A program made the position numbers and the translations under genes. Source: Leptolyngbya sp. 'hensonii' (GTDB lineage Bacteria > Cyanobacteriota > Cyanobacteriia > GCF-001939115). From it: a stretch of DNA of 64,000 nt. Under the pieces are notes generated by a model that saw nothing but the letters and a program-made list of their open reading frames with translations, was not told where the DNA came from and searched no databases. Shown in pieces: positions 3,186 through 36,914 of this stretch. Numbering within the stretch: position 1 is the first letter of the stretch; each line of letters begins with the position of its first letter. The DNA lies in assembly GCF_001939115.1 (NCBI RefSeq), contig NZ_MQTZ01000011.1, positions 113,998 through 177,997 on the forward strand, in the 5' to 3' direction.

Positions 3186-3368
3186 AACGGTGAAATTGTA
3201 CAGCGAGAGTTCTTCTATGCTATGCGATCGTCCTCTAATCCTTACTATTCACTCTCCGAACCTCACCATTCACCCGCCATCCTTTAGCAGACCAGTACCC
3301 TTAGCATCAACACCGTATTCTCTGGCAAGGTAGCGATTCAATTCCTCGTCGCAACAACAAGCAACTTA

Positions 3369-3466
3369 TAAGTAGGTCGGCATAATTAAATCGAGGATAG
3401 GTGTAGGGGTGAAGGGGGCATGCCCCCAGACCCCCATTTTTATAATTAATCTCACCCGATTACTTA
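3369..3466. repeat. Miniature inverted-repeat element, family C, copy 1
   Basis: A 98-bp non-coding block beginning TAAGTAGGTCGGCA and ending CACCCGATTACTTA. The outermost six bases are perfect inverted repeats (TAAGTA/TACTTA). A second copy lies at 5704-5792 with the same ends and AATTAATCTCACCCG near the right end. It carries no gene. Its right end supplies the stop codon of the PIN-like remnant at 3464. No clear target duplication is seen. Confidence 0.7.
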
Positions 3467-3610
3467 AGGCTGGTTTTGAAGTAGGAACGACTCAACGAAA
3501 TCGGCATCCTTGGTAATGACAATGCGCTGGTCTTGGATCGAAAGCTGATTAATGAATGCATCAGGGGTCGCATTATGCTGCGGCAAATCTATGAAATACC
3601 GGGGATCTGC
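3464..3610 (-). pseudogene. DUF5615-type PIN-like (toxin) gene remnant
   Basis: The minus-strand frame reads IDLPQHNATPDAFINQLS and then IVITKDADFVESFLLQ, which closely matches my memory of the middle of DUF5615 PIN-like proteins (about 110 residues, usually paired with a DUF433 antitoxin). Upstream the frame no longer resembles the family and soon hits stops. Downstream the protein ends abruptly after LLQNQP at a TAA lying inside the inverted-repeat element at 3369-3466, where intact relatives continue for some 25 residues. I see no partner antitoxin gene. This is a dead fragment. Confidence 0.7.
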
Positions 3611-3719
3611 TTCTACTTTAACCTCGGAATAATCCCATCGAACAGATAATCTGTGCCCCTTCTCGCCGTTCCTCTGGGTTGATCACACACAGGGCATCAT
3701 GCTCCCGCAGAAACGTTAC

Positions 3720-3932
3720 CAGTTTTGCCATTATTACCCAAAGACCCTGATGATCAGATTATTTTCATCCCCCAAGATGCCCTCTTTTTAGTACCCTTTG
3801 CCATACCAGAATACTCATCGCGAAATGCCTCGCTATGGCCAGCCTCCCCTGCAACTCGGTGCCCTGCCAGGAGTGGTTACACAAATGCAGCAGGCCCGCA
3901 TTATTCACCTGGCCACCCATGCTATTTTTTGG
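3720..3932 (+). pseudogene. CHAT-domain (caspase-like) gene remnant
   Basis: One frame reads LLPKDPDDQIIFIPQDALFLVPF and a second, shifted by two bases, continues with PPLQLGALPG and QARIIHLATHAIF. These are successive conserved blocks of cyanobacterial CHAT domains, the last containing the His of the catalytic dyad. The linking residues are deleted and the frame is broken, the start and TPR part are absent, and the sequence stops at a miniature element that begins at 3933, just after LATHAIF. The catalytic cysteine region is missing. It is a non-functional fragment. Confidence 0.75.
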
Positions 3933-4089
3933 GGCTTTGCTGAATGCAAATATGAATTACCCTCATCCCCAACCCTTCTCCCGCAGGAGAAGGGAGCTAA
4001 AACTCTTGTTCCCTCTCCTTTGGGAGAGGGCTAGGGTGAGGGCTGCATAAGGCTCAAGCACGAAAATCATCCTTCTATTCAGCAACGCC
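3933..4089. repeat. Miniature inverted-repeat element, family A, copy 1
   Basis: A 157-bp non-coding element with inverted ends GGCTTTGCTGAAT (left) and ATTCAGCAACGCC (right). The interior carries nested palindromes (CCCTCTCC...GGGAGAGGG). It is almost identical to the copy at 29523-29667, differing mainly by a 12-base insertion. It interrupts the CHAT remnant. T-rich sequence on both sides (six Ts before, seven after) makes an exact target duplication hard to call. Confidence 0.8.
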
Positions 4090-4104
4090 TTTTTTTGCAA
4101 GCCC

Positions 4105-5484
4105 TTAGTAAAGTGGCACGCCCCGCTGATAGGCATCGACAAAGCTCTTGTAGTCGTTTTCTACCTGTGTGGCGTAGTCCATTGCAAAGCTCAGGATTTC
4201 CTGTTTGAATTGGCTCCGTTTGCCTGCAACCAAGTCAGTCACTTCCTTGTCAATACTGACAGGAACGATCGTTGCATCATAGTCCTTGTCGGCTAGGGCA
4301 TGGTTCGTTGCCAGAACTTTCCCCTGATCGGTAGCTGTATCCAGGAATTTGCTTTTGCTGGTCAACAGGGTGTAGTCGAAATCAACGGCAGAGGGGGATT
4401 TTTCCCGAATCATAAAAGGCATCCCATTCACCATGGTATACCCCAACAGGGCATCGGTATGGGTCAGCATCGCCTTCATAGTCATGGCCACCCGCCGTCC
4501 CTCATGGTTGTCGTAAGCAGAGGCAGGGAAGCGCCCCGGAGCTGCGATCGCCACGGCACTGGCAACTTCCTGTTTCATTTCTAGAATCCGATCGTCGTCC
4601 TTATCGGTGCTGGGACCTTCAATCAGTAAGAGGTATCGGTATCGCCCCAGGCTCCCTGTCCCAGACCCCAGTTTCAGCCGTATATCCTTCAGCTTGTAGT
4701 AACTGCCATTCTGGCGTTTATCCTTGGCAATAGAGGCGATGTAATCCCCCATGCTCTTGGCAAGGCTGGCGGAGGTTTGCTGCGGGACAGGCTGTAACGC
4801 TGCACTGGTCTGGAATACTCGGGCTCCTGTCTGATCGATCGTGGTGTACTTGTCCAGAAACTTCGATCGAGATTGTTTTTTTGACTTTTGAATGAAATCT
4901 TGAACCAGGCTGCTGGTGTTGTCCGCATCCAGGCGGTAGGACAATTCTTCCTGGGAGCCTTTGAAGTCTTCCATCTGATCCAGGTAGGCATCCAGGAACT
5001 GGGTTACCACCTCTTTGCGATCGTCCAGGCCCACCTTCTGCTCCTGGGCCAACAGGAGAATGCCCACAGCCATCCGGCGCAGATCCCAGACATAGGGGCC
5101 GAGGTAGCCTTCATCGAAATCCGTGGTATTAAAGACCTCGTGGCCCTGGCTATCTTGAAACGTGCCCATGTTTTGGGGGTGCAGGTCTCCTTGCAGCCAG
5201 GCGGAAGAGGTAGCCGAGTTCACGAAATTGGAGGCGGGCAGAGTTTTCATGTCTTGATAGAAAATGTGAGCCGTACCTCGATAGAAGGCGAACGGTGTGG
5301 CGGACATTTTCTCCATTTTGGTTGCCAGGTCGTCAGGGAGTTGGGAGGCGAAGGAATGGTTGAACCGATAGATTTCTGCTTCCACCCAGGCGGGGCGGGA
5401 AGACGCAGCACAGGCGGCACTGGCTTGCAGATTGACTAGCACTGCGGCCACGATCGCAAGCATGACAATGAGATATTTTTTCAT
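4105..5484 (-). CDS. DUF2252 family protein with signal peptide
   Basis: 459 residues from the ATG at 5484, chosen because AGGAGG lies five bases upstream; a longer frame to 5550 lacks this. Residues 1-24 form a secretion signal (KKYLIVMLAIVAAVLVNL then ASA). The DUF2252 core is recognisable by FYRGTAHIFYQD, GDLHPQNMGTF and NTTDFDEGYLGPYVWDLRR, blocks that recall aminoglycoside-kinase-like folds (GDLHPxN, DFD). Biochemical function of the family is not established to my knowledge. Export is unusual for a kinase-like fold, which needs ATP, so the periplasmic location is worth noting. Monocistronic, flanked by repeats. Confidence 0.85.
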   Translation of the reverse strand: MKKYLIVMLAIVAAVLVNLQASAACAASSRPAWVEAEIYRFNHSFASQLPDDLATKMEKMSATPFAFYRGTAHIFYQDMKTLPASNFVNSATSSAWLQGDLHPQNMGTFQDSQGHEVFNTTDFDEGYLGPYVWDLRRMAVGILLLAQEQKVGLDDRKEVVTQFLDAYLDQMEDFKGSQEELSYRLDADNTSSLVQDFIQKSKKQSRSKFLDKYTTIDQTGARVFQTSAALQPVPQQTSASLAKSMGDYIASIAKDKRQNGSYYKLKDIRLKLGSGTGSLGRYRYLLLIEGPSTDKDDDRILEMKQEVASAVAIAAPGRFPASAYDNHEGRRVAMTMKAMLTHTDALLGYTMVNGMPFMIREKSPSAVDFDYTLLTSKSKFLDTATDQGKVLATNHALADKDYDATIVPVSIDKEVTDLVAGKRSQFKQEILSFAMDYATQVENDYKSFVDAYQRGVPLY

Positions 5485-5703
5485 ACACCCTCCTGGAGGA
5501 ATATAGCTATGCACCACTGATTGTGGTTCGGCTGGGATGAAGTGGTTCAAGCTAGCCCAGCAATAAGGAAGTAGTCATATAGTGTTTTAAGTAGAAAATT
5601 AAATGCTGTCCGTAAGATAAACTGCGTAAGCCTGGGTAAAGGTTATCTCGCTTGCGACCAATTTTGGGAAACTGAGCAATCCGTTGAAAAGTTGAATTCA
5701 TAT
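5485..5703. other. Intergenic stretch before the repeat cluster
   Basis: No convincing coding frame or RNA gene. It must contain the promoter of the DUF2252 gene. It is followed by three different miniature elements within about 440 bases. Confidence 0.4.
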
Positions 5704-5792
5704 TAAGTAGGTCGGCACAATTAAATTAAGGATGAGAGTCGGGGTGAACGGGGCACGCCCCCTTCTTATAATTAATCTCACCCGATTACTTA
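5704..5792. repeat. Miniature inverted-repeat element, family C, copy 2
   Basis: An 89-bp element beginning TAAGTAGGTCGGCA and ending CACCCGATTACTTA, in the same orientation as the copy at 3369-3466. Both share a GGGGCAC/TGCCCCC-type palindromic centre. No gene and no obvious target duplication. Confidence 0.7.
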
Positions 5793-5858
5793 CTGATAAA
5801 TCTTTCTGCAGTGAAAGTAGCATACTCAGTAGATTACTTCCCATTAGGAGGATGTTTT

Positions 5859-5992
5859 GGCGTTGCTGAATCACGGTATGATTTGCCCGATCTGAACGTG
5901 AGCGAGACCCTCACACTCCCTATCAATGCACAACTCTAGTAGTATGAGCATCTTGCTCACGCTCCTGATTCATTCCTTCATTCAGCAACGCC
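5859..5992. repeat. Miniature inverted-repeat element, family A, divergent copy
   Basis: 134 bp bounded by perfect 13-base inverted ends GGCGTTGCTGAAT / ATTCAGCAACGCC. Its interior differs from the other two copies and contains its own inverted pair (GTGAGCGAGA / TCTTGCTCAC). The flanking octamers (GATGTTTT and TATCTTTA) are only weakly alike, so any target duplication has decayed. Confidence 0.75.
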
Positions 5993-6010
5993 TATCTTTA
6001 TAAATCAGCT

Positions 6011-6143
6011 CTTAGGAATGAGAATTAAGTAAAGTGTCAAACTCCTGATTGCCCTCACCCCCCTGCCCCCTCTCCCAAATTTGGGGGAGGGGGCAGGGGG
6101 GTGAGGGCTGAAGAAATCCAGGTTATTAATTCCCGTTCCTTAG
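6011..6143. repeat. Miniature inverted-repeat element, family B, copy 1
   Basis: The element (6016-6138) begins GAATGAGAATTAA and ends TTAATTCCCGTTC, and is flanked on both sides by CTTAG. The centre is a strong palindrome (CCCCCTGCCCCCTCTCCC and its complement). Related copies lie at 27545-27687, 36949-37090 and 40907-41049, each flanked by CTAAG or a near match. Confidence 0.8.
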
Positions 6144-6213
6144 GAGTTGAGCAGAAGTAGTTCTCAAATTGTTTATGCAACAAAGCCGAAAATGGTGCAA
6201 GATCTCAGATAAC

Positions 6214-6576
6214 CTATATCAGGAGAGCTGCAACAGCCTCTCGATCCATAAACTGACGATTAGAATCATCCCTTACCGAGGCTGTAATCCCGTGATGGGG
6301 GTGATTTTCCCTCCAATAGAACTCATTGGCACTCAAGTTAACCCAAACCTTGTATCCAGTTTCTGAAACAGTAAGAGCAAGAGCAACACTGGACTGTGCT
6401 ATTTCGCAGGCGTACTGGTAAGCTTCTAACCTCTGATCGACTGTAAATGTATAGGCTAAAAGATACAATCCATTGTTGAACCTCATTCCCTGCTGCACGC
6501 AATCCATTAATAGAAACTTAAACAGGTAAACTCGCTTTTCTGAAAGAGTGATAGGCAACATAGCATTAGGCACCAA
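6214..6576 (-). CDS. Small hypothetical protein, paralogue of the 19019-19333 product
   Basis: 120 residues, soluble, one cysteine-containing segment near the N-terminus. The central part (QQGMRFNNGLYLLAY to SETGYKVWVNLS) lines up with SGMRYRHLFFRLVHQ to TTGKQYKIWAELKS in the gene at 19019-19333: same spacing, shared GMR[FY], an aromatic-rich helix, and GxxYK[VI]W. The family is unknown to me and probably cyanobacterial. Translation could start at either of the first two methionines (6576 or 6561). It stands alone between repeats and a 400-base gap. Confidence 0.6.
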   Translation of the reverse strand: MVPNAMLPITLSEKRVYLFKFLLMDCVQQGMRFNNGLYLLAYTFTVDQRLEAYQYACEIAQSSVALALTVSETGYKVWVNLSANEFYWRENHPHHGITASVRDDSNRQFMDREAVAALLI

Positions 6577-6818
6577 AACATGGTTTATGGCATTCTTGGA
6601 TTAAGTTGAAAGGCTTTCTCCCAACTCAACTCAAGCAAGTGTGATAGCTGAACCATGAAATAACTGAGATGTACTGATAGTAAACCTCATTATCAATGTT
6701 ACGGACTAGAGCCTGGATGGACTTCCGCGCTTACCCTGGATTTTTAATGGTTAGAAGTTAATAATGATTTTGTAATCAGGATAGTGGATACTCCTTCACC
6801 TGAAGCAAGCCTCACAAT

Positions 6819-6852
6819 AAAAAAGGCTCCTAATTCGGGCTTTTCAGGCCTT
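6819..6852 (-). terminator. Possible rho-independent terminator
   Basis: Read on the minus strand, AAGGC and GCCTT close a hairpin followed directly by TTTTTT. It lies about 140 bases downstream of the stop at 6993 and could end that transcript. The stem is short, so confidence is moderate. Confidence 0.45.
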
Positions 6853-6911
6853 ATATTCCAATAAATCTGTAATATAAAATAACAAATTGACCAATTTTGT
6901 TCCAATGAGAT

Positions 6912-6950
6912 GAGGTACAAGGGAGTCTAACCTTATGTCCTCTGTACCTC
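6912..6950. other. Isolated symmetrical hairpin
   Basis: GAGGTACA (6912-6919) pairs with TGTACCTC (6943-6950), and inside it GGA pairs with TCC after symmetrical two-base mismatches. There is no T-tract. It lies in the 3' region of the gene ending at 6993 and could stabilise or process that mRNA. Confidence 0.45.
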
Positions 6951-6992
6951 ACCTGTCAGGAAATTGTCATGGCGCTGCAGAAGAAGGAGACA

Positions 6993-7562
6993 TTATTGTC
7001 CCTGAGTGCGCCGAGTTCCAGTTGTCCGACCTGTTGTTCGGTTGCGGGTGGTTTTGGCTGAAGTCTTCGAAGCAACTGTACGGCCTCGCCCCTGATTGAA
7101 ACTTTCTTCTGGTTTGATTTCTAGCTCCATGGGTTCTGGGGTCACCGGAGCAGCAGTCAATTCTTCCCGACCAGAACTAGCTGGAGATTCCGCCAAACCC
7201 GGCATCATCAGGGTACTTCTATCACTCTCTGACAAAGGCTTCTGCTTTTGTCTTCTTTGCCGTCTTGGCGTAATGCCATTTCTTTCGCTGGACTTGCTTC
7301 GCCTCAGTCCCAGGGGAACGTAACGTCTAAGGGACCAGGAACTCACAGAAACACTCAGTTTGCCTGAAAGCAGGGCAGCAACTTCAGTGTATGTATACCC
7401 TTTAGCCAACGCAGCCCGGATTGATGGAGCAATCTGATGAATGGCTTCTACGATCGGCAAATATTCTGTTTCCTTTTTGGGCAATTCTTTCAGGAAGGAT
7501 TCTGCCTGCTCCAAGGTGGAGCGATTAACGGATCTACTTCTAGAAGATGTATGTGGGGTCAT
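6993..7562 (-). CDS. Hypothetical DNA-binding-like protein with basic tail
   Basis: 189 residues from the ATG at 7562 (MTPHTSSRSRS); an upstream in-frame start at 7706 would add 48 residues that do not look like protein. Residues 20-80 are helical and resemble a resolvase or KfrA-type HTH: APSIRAALAKGYTYTEVAALLS followed by SWSLRRYVP. The middle is basic (RRQRRQKQK) and the tail is a Thr/Arg/Gly-rich low-complexity stretch. This pattern is common in small cyanobacterial proteins of plasmid or mobile origin, but I cannot name a family. A role in DNA binding is inference. Confidence 0.6.
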   Translation of the reverse strand: MTPHTSSRSRSVNRSTLEQAESFLKELPKKETEYLPIVEAIHQIAPSIRAALAKGYTYTEVAALLSGKLSVSVSSWSLRRYVPLGLRRSKSSERNGITPRRQRRQKQKPLSESDRSTLMMPGLAESPASSGREELTAAPVTPEPMELEIKPEESFNQGRGRTVASKTSAKTTRNRTTGRTTGTRRTQGQ

Positions 7563-31496: not shown

Positions 31497-33959
31497 TCAG
31501 GTTACCCGCTTTTCTATTTCTGCCCGAGGTAGGAGCAGGGTATCCTCAAGCTCTTGCCGGACACCCATTTCCACATAACAATGACTCCGCAGACATTCAA
31601 CCAATAATTTGTTGGCTTCATAGTACTGTTGCAACTGAGCTTGTTGGGTGTCACTAAACTGCCAGTCTCTACCTACATAGTTACGCTGTTTAATCACAAG
31701 ATGCCGGAATTGCTCAAGCCAGAGTTGGCCATTGTTCTGCCACCACCGCTTGAGTTTTCCTTGCTCCCGATCGCTCTCCGGCAGTTGTGCGCTGAGTTCT
31801 TGCAGCGATTGCTGAAATTCAGAAAGAATTTTGTATTCCTCCTTCCATATCCTTTCCCGATCGAGAGCCCGTTCGCGTTTTTCGTGAGACGTGAGGGCTC
31901 TAGGATAGTCGTATAGACTTGGAGTGAGATTGCCATCAAGATTAACGAGCCGACGATTGACCAGCTTAAGGATATTCTCAAGGGCGCGGGTGAGCGCCCG
32001 CGATCGGGTAAAGGTTGCCTGCTCCAGAGTGCAGTCTCGAGCTAGCTTGATGACACAAATGACATTGAAGTCCAATTCAAAATCAAAAATCAGGGTATGG
32101 GCCAGGTTGTTATCAATGGCACGACCCAAATCATAGGTATGAATCCGGGAGTTATCCAGGTTGATCGTAAAGACAAGGGCAAAGTAAAAAGCTCGAATGG
32201 CAGCAGGCTTATAGGACACTTCCGGAGAACGACGCTTGTAGTCATCCATTGGATAAAGGATATCAATTTTGTCGCAAATGTGACGAGATTCGTGATTAAC
32301 CCAAGTCAAAAAGTTCTGTAGGTGTTCATCCTTTGCCAATACTTGGTCAATCTGGTGTTTCATCAAGGTCAAAAGTTGACCTGCGTTCGATAGCATTTCG
32401 ATCGTCAACAAAAAGATTTCTCGCCAGCGCTGATTTGTTACATGAGGGACTAAAGCATTGGATAGGGTATCAATTGTTGAGTTGGAAACAATTCTCTTAG
32501 CTGTCAAATATTCCTGAAATGTTTGATGGGAGAAGGAGTAAATACCTTGCGCCCGCGTCACTAATAAGCCATGCTGGGCTTCAATCGACTGCAAAATTGC
32601 TTCACTATCATGTTTTAATCTTTCCGGATCATTATTAATATTAGAAAGATTGCAGATATAGTCTCTTATATGTTTTTCAAGGACTTTCTGTGGGAAGAAG
32701 TATTCATTCCGTTCGAACGTTACTAAAGCAATATGACTGAGCAGATCTTCCTTGCGATGAAGGGAGAGTTTTTTGTATGTTTGGTAGCGTTCAATATTAC
32801 GGGCGGCATCCCATTGCTTGAGCAAGACATCCAACCCCTGTTGATAAAGTTCCGACCGGTTAACAGGAAAATCTCCTGCATCTTGAAATACCAGACAGAG
32901 CAAAGTCAGTAGCAGAGGACAGGTTGCCAGCTCTTTGATCGGCTTATTCTTTCTCAGCTTTTGCATGAAAAGTTTCATTTTGGCTGGGTCTTTAACCTGA
33001 AACCACTTTTCAGAAAAGTTTTTGATTTGCAGTTCATCAAAATCAGCCACTTCAACTTCAGTAAACTGCTGGAAGTTATAGTCTGATGCGGCGATCCGGC
33101 AGGTCATAACAAAGGTACTTCTGTGAAATCGAGCCGCAAATCTGCGAATCTCCTCCAGCACCCAGTCCTGGGATGCTTCACTGACTTCGTCTAGCCCATC
33201 TAACAGAACTAGAGCCCGTCCTGCGCTTAAGATCTGTTCTGCGACTAACAGATCTTGAATCCCACAGTCCAGAAAATATTCTGTGATGTAAGTCAGGAGC
33301 GATCGTCGCCCTTCAAATGCGGCAAAATATCGGAGGGTAAGCAGGATTGGAACTTGATGTTCTTGCAACTGACCCAGGTTGCATTTCGTCGCGATCCAGT
33401 GCAGAAAAGTTGTCTTCCCGGCTCCTGGCTTGCCCCAAATCATCAGCTTGTCATAGCGCTCTAATACGGCTTCTCCCGACACCTGTTTTTCCTGAATACT
33501 GGCCAGCCCAATGCGATCGAAGTTCTCCAGATTCTGCAGCTCAGAAATCGATGCATACTTGCTTCGGGTCACTTTTTCCAGAATATTAACATTGATGTAA
33601 ATGCTCTCCAGGTTGATCGGCGTATTCATGCCCAGGACCTTGATACTGCCGCATTCCTTGTGAATACTCCCTCGTAGCCGTTCCCGCACCATCTGCACCA
33701 GACTGTCCAGATCAAAATTCTTGACTAATACAGCCGTTCCTGATTCCAGTTCGGCAACCTCTTCCCATTTGATACTGAGTTCACTGCAGATTGTCTTGAA
33801 GGTCTGCTTATCAACGGGCCGTCCTGCCAAAAAGTTGTGCAGTGTCTGACGGCTACATCCAACTCTTACTATCAGATCTTTTTGGGTTAATCCCTGGTTT
33901 TCAAAGGCTGCTCTAACCTGCTGAAGTCCTGTTACCGATGCTCTGAATGACCTTGCCAT
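31497..33959 (-). CDS. XRE-HTH NACHT NTPase
   Basis: 820 residues from the ATG at 33959 (a start at 33983 would add eight). An XRE-type HTH occupies residues 5-65 (LTQKDLIVRVGCSRQTLHNFLAGRPV). Residues 85-170 are the helical NACHT-associated region (CGSIKVLGMNTPINLESIY). The NACHT domain has Walker A GKPGAGKTT (176-184), Walker B LVLLDGLDEV (250-259) and a sensor MTCR. The winged helix follows (SFSHQTFQEYLTAKRI), then a helical C-terminal region with no WD or LRR repeats. Bacterial NACHT proteins of other types give anti-phage defence; here the HTH suggests DNA binding. It is a candidate STAND sensor, transcribed alone, 890 bases downstream of the HTH-TPR gene. Confidence 0.93.
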   Translation of the reverse strand: MARSFRASVTGLQQVRAAFENQGLTQKDLIVRVGCSRQTLHNFLAGRPVDKQTFKTICSELSIKWEEVAELESGTAVLVKNFDLDSLVQMVRERLRGSIHKECGSIKVLGMNTPINLESIYINVNILEKVTRSKYASISELQNLENFDRIGLASIQEKQVSGEAVLERYDKLMIWGKPGAGKTTFLHWIATKCNLGQLQEHQVPILLTLRYFAAFEGRRSLLTYITEYFLDCGIQDLLVAEQILSAGRALVLLDGLDEVSEASQDWVLEEIRRFAARFHRSTFVMTCRIAASDYNFQQFTEVEVADFDELQIKNFSEKWFQVKDPAKMKLFMQKLRKNKPIKELATCPLLLTLLCLVFQDAGDFPVNRSELYQQGLDVLLKQWDAARNIERYQTYKKLSLHRKEDLLSHIALVTFERNEYFFPQKVLEKHIRDYICNLSNINNDPERLKHDSEAILQSIEAQHGLLVTRAQGIYSFSHQTFQEYLTAKRIVSNSTIDTLSNALVPHVTNQRWREIFLLTIEMLSNAGQLLTLMKHQIDQVLAKDEHLQNFLTWVNHESRHICDKIDILYPMDDYKRRSPEVSYKPAAIRAFYFALVFTINLDNSRIHTYDLGRAIDNNLAHTLIFDFELDFNVICVIKLARDCTLEQATFTRSRALTRALENILKLVNRRLVNLDGNLTPSLYDYPRALTSHEKRERALDRERIWKEEYKILSEFQQSLQELSAQLPESDREQGKLKRWWQNNGQLWLEQFRHLVIKQRNYVGRDWQFSDTQQAQLQQYYEANKLLVECLRSHCYVEMGVRQELEDTLLLPRAEIEKRVT

Positions 33960-34850
33960 GCACCCACCGAAACTTTTATACAAGTCCTACTTAAGTTTTA
34001 CATAAGCCCGATCGTTGTCAGACCACAGTTTAGAATTTTTCATGGATAGTAGAAAAGTAAAGTTCAGCACATTTAGAACAAGCAAAGTTCAACAAGAGTA
34101 ACCGCTGCCATTGAAAAGTCTTCAACCCAAACTTTAATCAGGAGCTGACTTTGTCCGATTACGACTCCTAACCCACATCTCACTCTGGGCCTATCCCAGA
34201 CAAAATGAATGGGCGATCGTGCCATCCAGTCACAAGCAATGCAACGTAATTATTGGACTGAAATCCTGAGTTATTGATAGATAACTCAACCTCCAAGTAG
34301 CTCAGTGTAATTAAGTAGAAGACAGCTTCGGGGTGGAGGGGGCGATCTCCTTCTCCCTGCAGAGCTCCCCATCCCCTCCCTGTTTGGATATAGCGTTGCT
34401 ATGCCCCAATCCAGATAACTCAGTCTCAATCCATTTCGTAATCCCCATCCGTGATTTCCTGAAGCATGAATCGGCATGGAAGCGCAGTGGGGCCATCGCT
34501 TCTTTTCTACTGCAGTGACCAATTAGCCTCAACGGAGCAACTAATCATGATACGTCTTGTCCTCTGGGTAGGTCTCCTATCCAGAACCCTGGTGCCTGCC
34601 AGCTTTGATTTGACAAATTTTGACTCCAATTATGCCCTTCAGACTTACAGGTTGCAGATCGATCGAATACTGGTAAGCAGGCAGCAGTATAGCTGGATGC
34701 AAGCAGGTCCGATCGTTCCCCCTGCCGGAAAAAGTTTAAAGAAAGCGGGTCCGATCGTTCCTCCCGCTTAAATTGGGTACAGGGGTCTTCCATGCTGCTG
34801 AGCAGTATGGCAAGGCAGCCTCCTCCCTATGGATCAGAAGCACAATCCTC
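33960..34850. other. Long intergenic region upstream of the NACHT gene
   Basis: About 890 bases with no frame I can support as coding. It contains the NACHT promoter region, a C/T-rich stretch at 34325-34385, and two tandem hairpin units at 34703-34767. Short frames here lack family features. Confidence 0.4.
34703..34767. repeat. Two tandem hairpin units
   Basis: The units GCAGGTCCGATCGTTCCCCC...(34703-34735) and GCGGGTCCGATCGTTCCTCC...(34745-34767) share the loop TCCGATCGTTCC while the stems differ compensatorily: GCAGG/CCTGC in the first and GCGGG/CCCGC in the second. The compensatory change supports real structure. Function unknown. Confidence 0.55.
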
Positions 34851-35912
34851 CTATGGGGAAGACTTCAGGTGGGCATGGGCTTCCGATTGCCACAGATCCA
34901 ACTCGGGAAAGCGATAGGCCATGGAAAGATTGTCTCCAAGCTCACGACAATTTTTCCATGATGCGATCGCGGCCTGATAATTGCCTTGAGCAGTATGAAC
35001 TTTTGCCAGTAAGCAATGGGCGTCGGGCCGGTTACCGTCTAACTCAATCGCCTTGAGCAGATATTTTCCTGCTTCCAGGTAATTCCCTTTGTATAGATAT
35101 GCCCAACCAAGATTCTTGTGCAGCGCTGATCTCACAGCACGGTCTCCCAGGTGCGCTAAGCGAGGCAAAATTTGTTCTAAGCGAGGCAGAATCAGGTCAA
35201 TAGCTTGATCTTCCTCACCCTGAAGAATGTGTAACCGGGCCAGATTGTTGATCGCTGCATATACGGCATGTTCTTCATCCTCCGGGACATTGGTCTGGCT
35301 GGCCACAATTGTGTAATGCTGGCGGGCCTCTTCTTTATGACCCAGCTTTTCGTAGGCTGACCCTAAGTTGAAATGGGCACTGGGCAGTTCCGGATTAAAC
35401 TGAACCGCAAACTCCAAATAGAATGTTGCACTGCGAATGTCTCCATTCATATAGATCTGATGTCCCAGTTCATTCAGGACGTTCGCAAATTCTTTTTTCT
35501 GTTTTTGCGGAGAAGAATTTGCCAGCAATTGCTGTAACACAGTAGCAAGATCCTCCTTAGGTTGCTTCAGCACAAGCTGAATGAAACTGGCTTCGAAGAG
35601 ACCTTTATTTTCTGAATTGACTGATCTTGGCAGCAAATCAGGCTGAGATTGACTTTCATTTAAGAGTTCTGGTTTATGCTGGGCCACCAGGGTCACGATC
35701 TCAGTTCGTCTCGATCGTCGTTCTCCCGTACCGTCACCCCCCAGTTCAAAATCCTGGCCAATTCGTTCGATGTACTTCCTGACCGTAGACTCTCCTATCC
35801 CTAAAGCCTGAGCAATTTCTGCATCAGTTTCTCCTTTAAGCATCCGGAGCAACACATCCCTGCGCCGGGGGGGCAGATTCTTAAAAGCTTGCTCAAATTC
35901 TGGGCATTTCAT
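34851..35912 (-). CDS. HTH-TPR regulatory protein
   Basis: 353 residues. The first 60 residues are a LuxR/sigma-4-like HTH (LPPRRRDVLLRMLKGETDAEIAQALGIGESTVRKYIERI) followed by RRSRRTEIVTLVAQHKPELL, a module I recall at the N-terminus of cyanobacterial STAND, TPR and other signalling proteins. From about 150 to 345 there are TPR-type helix pairs (SAHFNLGSAYEKLGHKEEARQHY, LHKNLGWAYLYKGNYLEAGKYLLKAIEL, DAHCLLAKVHTAQGNYQAAIASW). It could be a DNA-binding scaffold. It is encoded upstream of the NACHT gene in the same direction, but an 890-base gap argues against a single simple operon. Confidence 0.85.
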   Translation of the reverse strand: MKCPEFEQAFKNLPPRRRDVLLRMLKGETDAEIAQALGIGESTVRKYIERIGQDFELGGDGTGERRSRRTEIVTLVAQHKPELLNESQSQPDLLPRSVNSENKGLFEASFIQLVLKQPKEDLATVLQQLLANSSPQKQKKEFANVLNELGHQIYMNGDIRSATFYLEFAVQFNPELPSAHFNLGSAYEKLGHKEEARQHYTIVASQTNVPEDEEHAVYAAINNLARLHILQGEEDQAIDLILPRLEQILPRLAHLGDRAVRSALHKNLGWAYLYKGNYLEAGKYLLKAIELDGNRPDAHCLLAKVHTAQGNYQAAIASWKNCRELGDNLSMAYRFPELDLWQSEAHAHLKSSP

Positions 35913-36239
35913 GTTCAGTCCTGAGGTTGACTTTCGATGGCTGATAATGTGCTATAGGTGTCTCTGACCTGATTGAGGGGTCCACAGGCCATGCTCCTAC
36001 AGGCCCAAGCAACTGTTGAGGAAAATTACCTCTATGATTTTGGCTGATGTTTTCTGATTTTTACACAGATGTGACTTTCCTGATTGTTCTTTACTGGATT
36101 AAGTAGGACTGTCAGGGATATACTTTTCACCATGCATCCACACTCATCCGCTCTGACCCTCAGAATTCCAAGCTCCAAGATCAAAACCCGAACGATCGTC
36201 CTTTGAAAAATCCCCTCCTGGAAGAAATGGCCCGCAGGG
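35913..36239. other. Intergenic region between methyltransferase and HTH-TPR genes
   Basis: 327 bases with no gene or RNA that I can support; presumed promoter region of the HTH-TPR gene. Confidence 0.35.
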
Positions 36240-36914
36240 TCAGGACTGGATTACCAGCATTTCATTTCCGCCTTTCTGGAGTTCATAAGCCACCTTGACC
36301 GTGGTGACGCTGTAACCCCTCTCCTCCAAAGCCCGCAGCACAAATTCCAAATGGGGCGATCGTTGCATCATCAGCGTCACCAGTGGGAAGATGCGAACTT
36401 CTCGACTCACCCGCAACATTGCCTGCACGGAATCGAGGTGAAATGCTGCGTCATAGTGATCTGAATACAAGAACAGAAAATGGGAGCATAGGGCCAGGTC
36501 AAAGCTCTGGTCAGGGAAGGGGAGTTCTGGTAAGGCAGCAACCTGATACCGACCAGCCTGTTGGCCCCGATCGTAGTCTGCGATAAAGGTCTGGATAGTT
36601 TGTATCCGGCTCTGGCGCAATGCCTCTGGGGAAGCATGATAACTCCAGACCCAATCCTCTGGGCTGGCTTTCACCTGGGCGATGATGTCATCGACAACTG
36701 CATGGAATTGCTGCAGGATTTCTGGCCCCTGAAATTGATAGATGGGGTCGATCGACGTGACATGGCCCCCCATAGTTGTGACTTCGGCATTAAAACTGGC
36801 AGGACCATCCCCAACTCCCAGAATGCGTTGCGTCAAATCGGTAGCCGAGAGATTGAACATTTTCTTGTATTCATCCAGCGATCGACCAAAAGGGACCACT
36901 TGCTCCAACTTCAT
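36240..36914 (-). CDS. SAM-dependent methyltransferase-like protein
   Basis: 224 residues from the ATG at 36914 (MKLEQVVPFG); ATG codons at 36920 and 36926 are also possible. The class I motif is LGVGDGPASFNAEVTTMGGHVTSIDPIY (glycine loop plus acidic residue at the end of strand 2), and FDLALCSHFLFLYSD is the motif IV strand. No substrate-specific domain is attached. It is a single-domain methyltransferase of unknown target, transcribed in the direction of the HTH-TPR gene. A family-B element lies just upstream. Confidence 0.8.
   Translation of the reverse strand: MKLEQVVPFGRSLDEYKKMFNLSATDLTQRILGVGDGPASFNAEVTTMGGHVTSIDPIYQFQGPEILQQFHAVVDDIIAQVKASPEDWVWSYHASPEALRQSRIQTIQTFIADYDRGQQAGRYQVAALPELPFPDQSFDLALCSHFLFLYSDHYDAAFHLDSVQAMLRVSREVRIFPLVTLMMQRSPHLEFVLRALEERGYSVTTVKVAYELQKGGNEMLVIQS

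What the first reader, a model, noticed from the sequence alone, without database searches (positions are those of the whole stretch)
31497..36914. XRE-HTH NACHT NTPase next to an HTH-TPR protein and a methyltransferase
A STAND-type NACHT ATPase with its own DNA-binding domain and no repeat sensor sits in a run of same-strand genes with an HTH-TPR protein of a type found with cyanobacterial signalling ATPases. Bacterial NACHT proteins are known in phage defence (Kibby and colleagues' bNACHT work), but HTH-fused forms are mostly uncharacterised. The C-terminal 350 residues carry no domain I can name. Co-function of the three genes is inference, and the 890-base gap weakens it.
Basis: partly seen in the sequence, partly recalled or inferred. 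Interest (0 to 1): 0.6.

Follow-up and report, generated by a model that had tools for sequence, protein, structure and literature searches.

The report
Cyanobacterial NLR-like protein with hypervariable segment
The gene is a solo, DNA-binding relative of animal and plant immune receptors, widespread in cyanobacteria, and the part of it that would be expected to recognise invaders is, in its close relatives, written in a rapidly changing six-base repeat, which may be a simple way for bacteria to vary an immune sensor.

Summary
The proposed link to the HTH-TPR and methyltransferase genes fails: neither is near any of 43 homologous loci.

What is notable lies between the helical part and NCH2. 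Aligning 99 cyanobacterial homologues shows a conserved core and NCH2 around a segment of 0 to about 160 residues. In 21-23 members this segment is an [A/D/S/N][L/R/I/F] dipeptide tract coded by hexanucleotide repeats (CKCGMC-type). All tract genes with a place in the core tree lie in the half that holds the window gene; the other well-supported clade (50 rows) has none. In matched pairs with 80-97% identical cores, segments are 26% identical with a median 44-residue length difference, against 84% and 0 in that other clade. Successive units of the purest tracts differ only by amino-acid-changing bases (131 replacement, 0 silent in three genes). The window gene keeps the two-residue alternation (z=5.4), but its DNA repeat has decayed.

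Best reading: an NLR-like conflict sensor with an exchangeable N-terminus (a sister carries a Thoeris-type TIR) and a repeat-diversified sensing segment. Function is inferred, not shown.

The parts
31497..33959 (-). HTH-NACHT-NCH2 gene, 820 aa from ATG (ORF extends to TTG at 33983)
33744..33893 (-). N-terminal Cro/cI-type HTH (residues 23-72), at the effector/adaptor position; other members have a sigma70_r4-type HTH or a TIR here
   Evidence: Pfam; helices with pLDDT 69-86
32997..33446 (-). NACHT domain (residues 172-321), Walker A 176-184 GKPGAGKTT, Walker B 252-258 LLDGLDE
   Evidence: Pfam; conserved columns; best structural matches NLRC4/NOD2/NLRP3
31824..32186 (-). hypervariable segment (residues 592-712): decayed dipeptide tract between the conserved helical part and NCH2; proposed sensing segment
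31527..31817 (-). NCH2, NACHT C-terminal helical domain 2 (residues 715-811)
   Evidence: Pfam
34851..35912 (-). neighbour: HTH-TPR gene (353 aa); not part of a conserved unit with the NACHT gene
36240..36914 (-). neighbour: weak SAM methyltransferase-like gene; not part of a conserved unit

Best explanation
The gene encodes a stand-alone, NLR-like STAND NTPase used as an intracellular conflict sensor, most likely against phages or other mobile elements. At rest the NACHT-helical core holds it inactive. Contact of an invader (or invader-altered host) molecule with the C-terminal part, the variable segment 592-712 resting on NCH2, releases the core, which oligomerises with ATP. The N-terminal HTH, which occupies the effector position, then acts through DNA (clustering on or regulating DNA, or recruiting a partner); sister proteins put a TIR or a different HTH at that place. 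The variable segment is built and rebuilt by gain, loss and reshuffling of in-frame hexanucleotide units coding [A/D/S/N][L/R/I/F] dipeptides, probably a helical element, so the sensor can change without a frameshift. The window copy is an older, point-diverged version that keeps the two-residue pattern but has lost the DNA repeat. Shown here: domain order, conservation, hypervariability of the segment, its repeat coding in sisters, domain swap, patchy multi-copy and plasmid distribution, solo gene context. Inferred: sensing by this segment, ATP-driven oligomerisation, defence, and what the HTH does.
For: Architecture with NACHT and NCH2 in 19 of 19 scanned homologues. Conserved core and NCH2 with a variable middle. 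Hexamer tracts with 6-nt autocorrelation up to 0.82-0.84 against about 0.25 in the rest of the gene. Matched pairs: with cores 80-97% identical, tract genes (6 pairs) have median segment identity 0.26 and length difference 44 aa, while the no-tract clade (57 pairs) has 0.84 and 0; orthologues L047/L049 are 90% identical in core DNA without gaps while the tract differs by 63 nt of gaps. All tract members with a place in the core tree fall in the 47-row half that holds the window gene, 0 of 50 in the other starred clade. Replacement-only differences between units (48:0, 35:0, 48:0; 961:77 over 15 tracts). Even the tractless Tolypothrix PCC 7601/7910 pair, about 99% identical over the first 1,200 nt, is least similar in this segment, about 90%. 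The window segment has strong dipeptide alternation (z=5.4; 0 of 2000 shuffles) found nowhere else in the protein. TIR-for-HTH swap with a ThsB-type TIR (2.6e-52). 0-8 copies per genome, full-length copies on plasmids, no recurrent neighbour. The low-confidence model still matches NLRC4, NOD2 and NLRP3 best.
Against: No function has been tested and no characterised close homologue was found (no PDB sequence match; only weak PADLOC and NCBIfam similarities). The window sits among housekeeping-type genes (CinA-like protein, ThrRS, glycogen phosphorylase), not in a defence island. Structure prediction of the C-terminal half failed (pLDDT under 50), so contact between segment and ligand is pure inference. 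Variability alone could mean relaxed constraint on a linker. The window gene has no close relative in the collections, so its own variability was not measured. One tract pair (L060/L063) is not hypervariable.
Confidence: 0.55

Rival explanations
1. STAND transcription regulator of ordinary physiology (works like MalT or other STAND activators): the HTH binds a promoter, NACHT is the switch, the C-terminus senses a metabolite or host signal.
For: Genuine Cro/cI HTH, in some sisters a sigma70_r4-type HTH; location among housekeeping genes.
Against: Copy number 0-8, patchy presence and plasmid copies, TIR in place of HTH in a sister, no conserved neighbour that could be a target, and a very fast-changing segment fit conflict better than housekeeping sensing.
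Confidence: 0.2
2. The variable segment is only a low-complexity linker whose hexanucleotide repeats expand and contract neutrally; it has no recognition role.
For: Repeats slip by nature; some members lack nearly the whole segment (L009-L011); other hexamer repeats exist in unrelated ORFs of cyanobacterial genomes.
Against: Neutral decay should leave silent differences at roughly a quarter of changes (my estimate from the codons involved); three tracts have 131 replacement and 0 silent differences between successive units. Other hexamer repeats found were near-pure two-residue runs in unrelated genes, whereas all five LALD-type tracts in 386 genomes were in this NACHT family. The window keeps the two-residue pattern after its DNA repeat has gone.
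Confidence: 0.2
3. Diversity-generating retroelement target: the tract is a variable region written by error-prone reverse transcription, as in NACHT-CLec sensors of multicellular bacteria (PMC10907252).
For: DGR-diversified NACHT/STAND sensors are described; most tract codons end in C, as in DGR variable regions; a NACHT-FGE protein in G019 (L321) also carries a tract.
Against: No reverse transcriptase match near the tract genes in the genomes tested (the only one on a shared contig is over 400 kb away), no A-rich template-like copy; changes include whole-unit indels and, in the purest tract, are transversions at second codon positions.
Confidence: 0.03
4. Three-gene system: HTH-NACHT, HTH-TPR and methyltransferase act together.
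For: Same strand, adjacent in this window.
Against: 0 of 43 homologous loci have either partner nearby (one weak TPR-only match); HTH-TPR relatives lie elsewhere; 891-base gap.
Confidence: 0.02

Closest known systems
Bacterial NACHT (bNACHT) anti-phage proteins, e.g. bNACHT25/32 (clade 6, NCH1) and bNACHT02/12 (clade 14, SNaCT); PMC12169576
   Same: NACHT core, N-terminal effector position, C-terminal domain, single-gene systems
   Different: HTH instead of nuclease effector, NCH2 instead of NCH1 or SNaCT, and a repeat-coded hypervariable segment before the C-terminal domain; phage defence untested
DGR-diversified NACHT/STAND-CLec sensors of multicellular bacteria; PMC10907252
   Same: NLR-like protein with a diversified C-terminal sensing part
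   Different: No CLec domain, RT or template here; diversity comes from in-frame hexanucleotide units
Eukaryotic NLRs (NLRC4, NOD2, NLRP3); fungal NLRs with highly similar internal repeats (PMC12222747)
   Same: NACHT fold family; fungal NLRs also vary through repeats in the sensor
   Different: Repeat units of tens of residues (LRR, WD40, TPR) rather than two-residue units; no DNA-binding N-terminus
STAND transcription activators (MalT type; from general knowledge)
   Same: HTH plus STAND switch plus C-terminal sensing part
   Different: HTH N-terminal and Cro/cI-type rather than C-terminal LuxR-type; NACHT rather than the MalT-type clade

Membership tests
NACHT STAND NTPase | NACHT domain over the Pfam cut-off with intact Walker A and B | tested here: met
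   PF05729 58.6 bits (cut-off 26.7); GKPGAGKTT and LLDGLDE conserved
NACHT STAND NTPase | ATP-driven oligomerisation | not testable with these tools
   needs biochemistry
Anti-phage bNACHT system | tripartite order: N-terminal effector, NACHT, C-terminal sensing part | tested here: inconclusive
   order met, but the N-terminal domain is an HTH of unknown output; a sister has a TIR
Anti-phage bNACHT system | protects against phage when expressed | not testable with these tools
   needs plaque assays
Anti-phage bNACHT system | match to a characterised defence model over its cut-off | tested here: not met
   PADLOC and NCBIfam give only weak ATPase-level similarity
NCH2-type NACHT proteins | NCH2 domain at the C-terminus | tested here: met
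   PF22727 1.1e-34 in the window; 19 of 19 homologues scanned
DGR target | linked reverse transcriptase and template repeat | tested here: not met
Hexamer-tract branch of the family | overt DNA hexanucleotide tract in the segment | tested here: not met
   window 6-nt identity 0.33 (z=2.8), below overt tracts at 0.45 or more
Hexamer-tract branch of the family | two-residue alternation in the segment and position in the same half of the core tree | tested here: met
   z=5.4; 47-row starred set

The most novel reading that the evidence does not exclude
Cyanobacterial NLR-like proteins diversify their sensing segment by turnover of in-frame hexanucleotide units, a DGR-independent way of making variable immune receptors, and the same kind of [A/D][L/R] tract, also fast-changing, is used by an uncharacterised family of proteins on viral contigs, possibly as the opposing side of a conflict.
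Probability: 0.35. Interest if true: 0.88.

Novelty: new variant of a known kind. Interest (0 to 1): 0.68.

Why it matters
Bacterial NLR relatives are known to sense phages, but how their sensing parts keep up with changing phages is largely open; DGR hypermutation is one proposed mechanism. A sensor segment rewritten by six-base units would be a simpler route, easy to see in strain-level sequencing and easy to test by segment swaps, and cultured strains carry members (for example WP_015186318.1 of Allocoleopsis franciscana PCC 7113 with a tract, WP_011153595.1 on pSYSM of Synechocystis PCC 6803 without one). I found no paper describing these tracts in the held library, which is not proof of absence.

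Tried and rejected
Co-occurrence with HTH-TPR or methyltransferase: rejected. DGR: no RT or template. Named phages: no relative of the NACHT protein. Viral contigs: only distant NACHT relatives. RNA families and promoter/terminator scans around the genes: nothing above chance. PDB by sequence: none. A viral-contig scan with the bare hexamer pattern returned many GC-rich chance runs as well as real tract proteins. Fold search with the viral tract protein model: no match. No defence-island enrichment test with a control was run.
Full report
Observation. The minus-strand ORF 31497-33983 is intact; the ATG at 33959 gives 820 residues that align with most homologues from the first residues on. Pfam finds a Cro/cI HTH (residues 23-72), NACHT (172-321) and NCH2 (715-811), the last at 1.1e-34. 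The HTH-TPR gene and the methyltransferase-like gene are also there. So the description is right, except that the C-terminus does have a known domain.

The three genes are not a unit. I fetched 40 loci of homologues from whole genomes with up to 8 kb on each side (some contigs are shorter) and 3 named loci. None holds the methyltransferase, and none holds the HTH-TPR protein; one has a weak match to the TPR part only. In the same 59 genomes HTH-TPR relatives occur in 10, almost always on other contigs; apart from the window's own contig the one shared contig (G024) has them 53 kb apart. Clustering all neighbours shows nothing recurrent besides generic signalling proteins and same-genus synteny. 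The NACHT gene is a solo gene.

The family. Homologues occur in 32 of 59 genomes at 1e-20, with 0 to 8 matches per genome, in 53 of 386 cyanobacterial genomes at 1e-120, and on plasmids (95 records, 32 with most of the protein; all 30 best rows cyanobacterial); none in 50,697 phage records. The window's own genome has a second, 38% identical copy and eight NACHT matches over the Pfam cut-off. The N-terminus is exchangeable: Cro/cI HTH in many, a sigma70_r4-like HTH in L060, and in L048 a TIR that matches the Thoeris ThsB model at 2.6e-52. This fusion is the best hint of a defence role.

The variable segment. Column conservation is high to residue 560 and again over NCH2, and falls between them. 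In many relatives this stretch reads as [A/D/S/N][L/R/I/F] dipeptides. In DNA it is a hexanucleotide tract: in L047 nearly all units are C[T/G]CG[A/C]C, and 6-nt autocorrelation is 0.82 against 0.25 in the rest of the gene. In 99 unique members, 17 have autocorrelation of at least 0.45 and 21 have z of at least 3 against codon shuffles; I labelled 23 as tract genes, adding very short tracts by eye. Each gene has its own unit set: ALDL/ALDR in L047, SLSLDLDLSRTL in L268, LDSALTSA in Allocoleopsis PCC 7113, SRSLSLSR in Nostoc C057.

It is hypervariable. Among pairs with cores 80-97% identical, six tract pairs have a median segment identity of 0.26 and a median length difference of 44 residues, while 57 pairs of the no-tract clade have 0.84 and 0. 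The pairs are not independent and the tract pairs are few; L060/L063 is an exception at 0.88. Orthologues L047 and L049 are 90.3% identical over core DNA without a gap, 87% over NCH2, and differ by 63 nt of gaps in the tract. L058/L061 have 65 against 157 residues there. Scytonema-type relatives L009-L011 lack the segment and most of NCH2. In a tractless pair on Tolypothrix plasmids the first 1,200 nt are about 99% identical and the segment about 90%.

Selection hint. Comparing each codon with the one two before it, L047 has 48 differences, all at second positions and all replacements; L268 has 35 and L050 48, none silent; over 15 tracts there are 961 replacement and 77 silent. From the codons involved I would expect roughly a quarter silent under random change. 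Unit copying erases silent differences, so variety in residues appears to be kept or favoured. Adjacent units are not independent events, so no p-value is given.

The window member. It has no overt tract: 6-nt identity 0.33, z=2.8. Its highest-scoring stretch in the gene is exactly this segment, but about 3% of ORF stretches elsewhere in the window score as high, so this DNA signal alone is weak. At protein level the alternation is strong: lag-2 autocorrelation 0.39, lag-1 -0.32, 0 of 2000 shuffles as high, absent from every other part of the protein (z=5.4). Some untracted members of both halves also show moderate alternation. In the core tree the window lies in a starred set of 47 rows that includes all 21 tract rows in the tree; the other starred clade of 50 has none (quick method, SH-aLRT only). 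I read it as a point-diverged derivative of the tract form, though the reverse order is possible.

Specificity. An eight-unit pattern in 386 genomes hit 16 genomes. All five tracts of the mixed LALD kind lie in this NACHT family; the rest are near-pure GAGA, VDVD, VAVA, IAIA, LDLD or similar runs in unrelated ORFs or frames. A different NACHT protein with an FGE-like domain (L321) also has a tract.

Structure. The window model is poor (mean pLDDT 51), with HTH and NACHT fair and the C-terminal half unusable; its best PDB matches are NLRC4, NOD2 and NLRP3, as expected of a NACHT core. For a tract protein from a viral contig (L187, 12 sequences, mean pLDDT 81.5) the tract is modelled as a long helical hairpin with low confidence at the turn. 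The rarity of Pro and Gly in NACHT tracts fits helix.

Mechanism and rivals. NLR-like proteins sense with the part after the NACHT-helical core; the segment sits there, is the fastest-changing part, and is varied without breaking the frame. Hence the reading of a repeat-diversified sensor in a solo conflict NTPase. A housekeeping STAND regulator and a neutral linker are the serious rivals; a DGR is not supported by RT or template searches. Novelty: the protein class is known, and NCH2 is named in Pfam; the hexanucleotide-coded variable segment is, as far as the held literature shows, not described.

Noticed in passing
L124 2892-3692, L137 5156-6007, L187 4669-5571, L196 4368-5141, L209 643-1383, L210, L229, L236, L238 (IMG/VR contigs): A family of proteins on viral contigs (conserved N-terminal 'GSH...G.C..EA.A..AGE..SD.P.C' region, no Pfam or clear PHROG match) carries the same kind of [A/D][L/R] hexamer tract; it is unrelated to NACHT by tblastn.
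   Followed up: partly
L210:6664-7392 and L210:7777-8436: Two tandem copies of that viral gene with identical upstream flank (about 330 nt) and one difference downstream, but very different hexamer tracts, with gaps mostly in multiples of six; an assembly artefact is possible.
   Followed up: partly
L048:8040-10739 (G019): TIR-NACHT-tract-NCH2 protein with a ThsB-type TIR; a second large ORF 3290-7441 next to it has a TIR-like N-terminus by eye.
   Followed up: partly
L321:402-3242 (G019:C1): NACHT protein with FGE-sulfatase-like (CLec) match followed by a VRDLDRDRDL-type tract, a different NACHT branch with the same kind of tract.
   Followed up: partly
L363 (Nostoc sp. MS1 pNSMS105): A homologue that looks broken into several annotated ORFs on a plasmid.
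   Followed up: no
window 34685-34770: The gap between NACHT and HTH-TPR holds a short near-repeat (GGAACGATCGGACC-type, twice); no RNA family or terminator signal above chance.
   Followed up: partly
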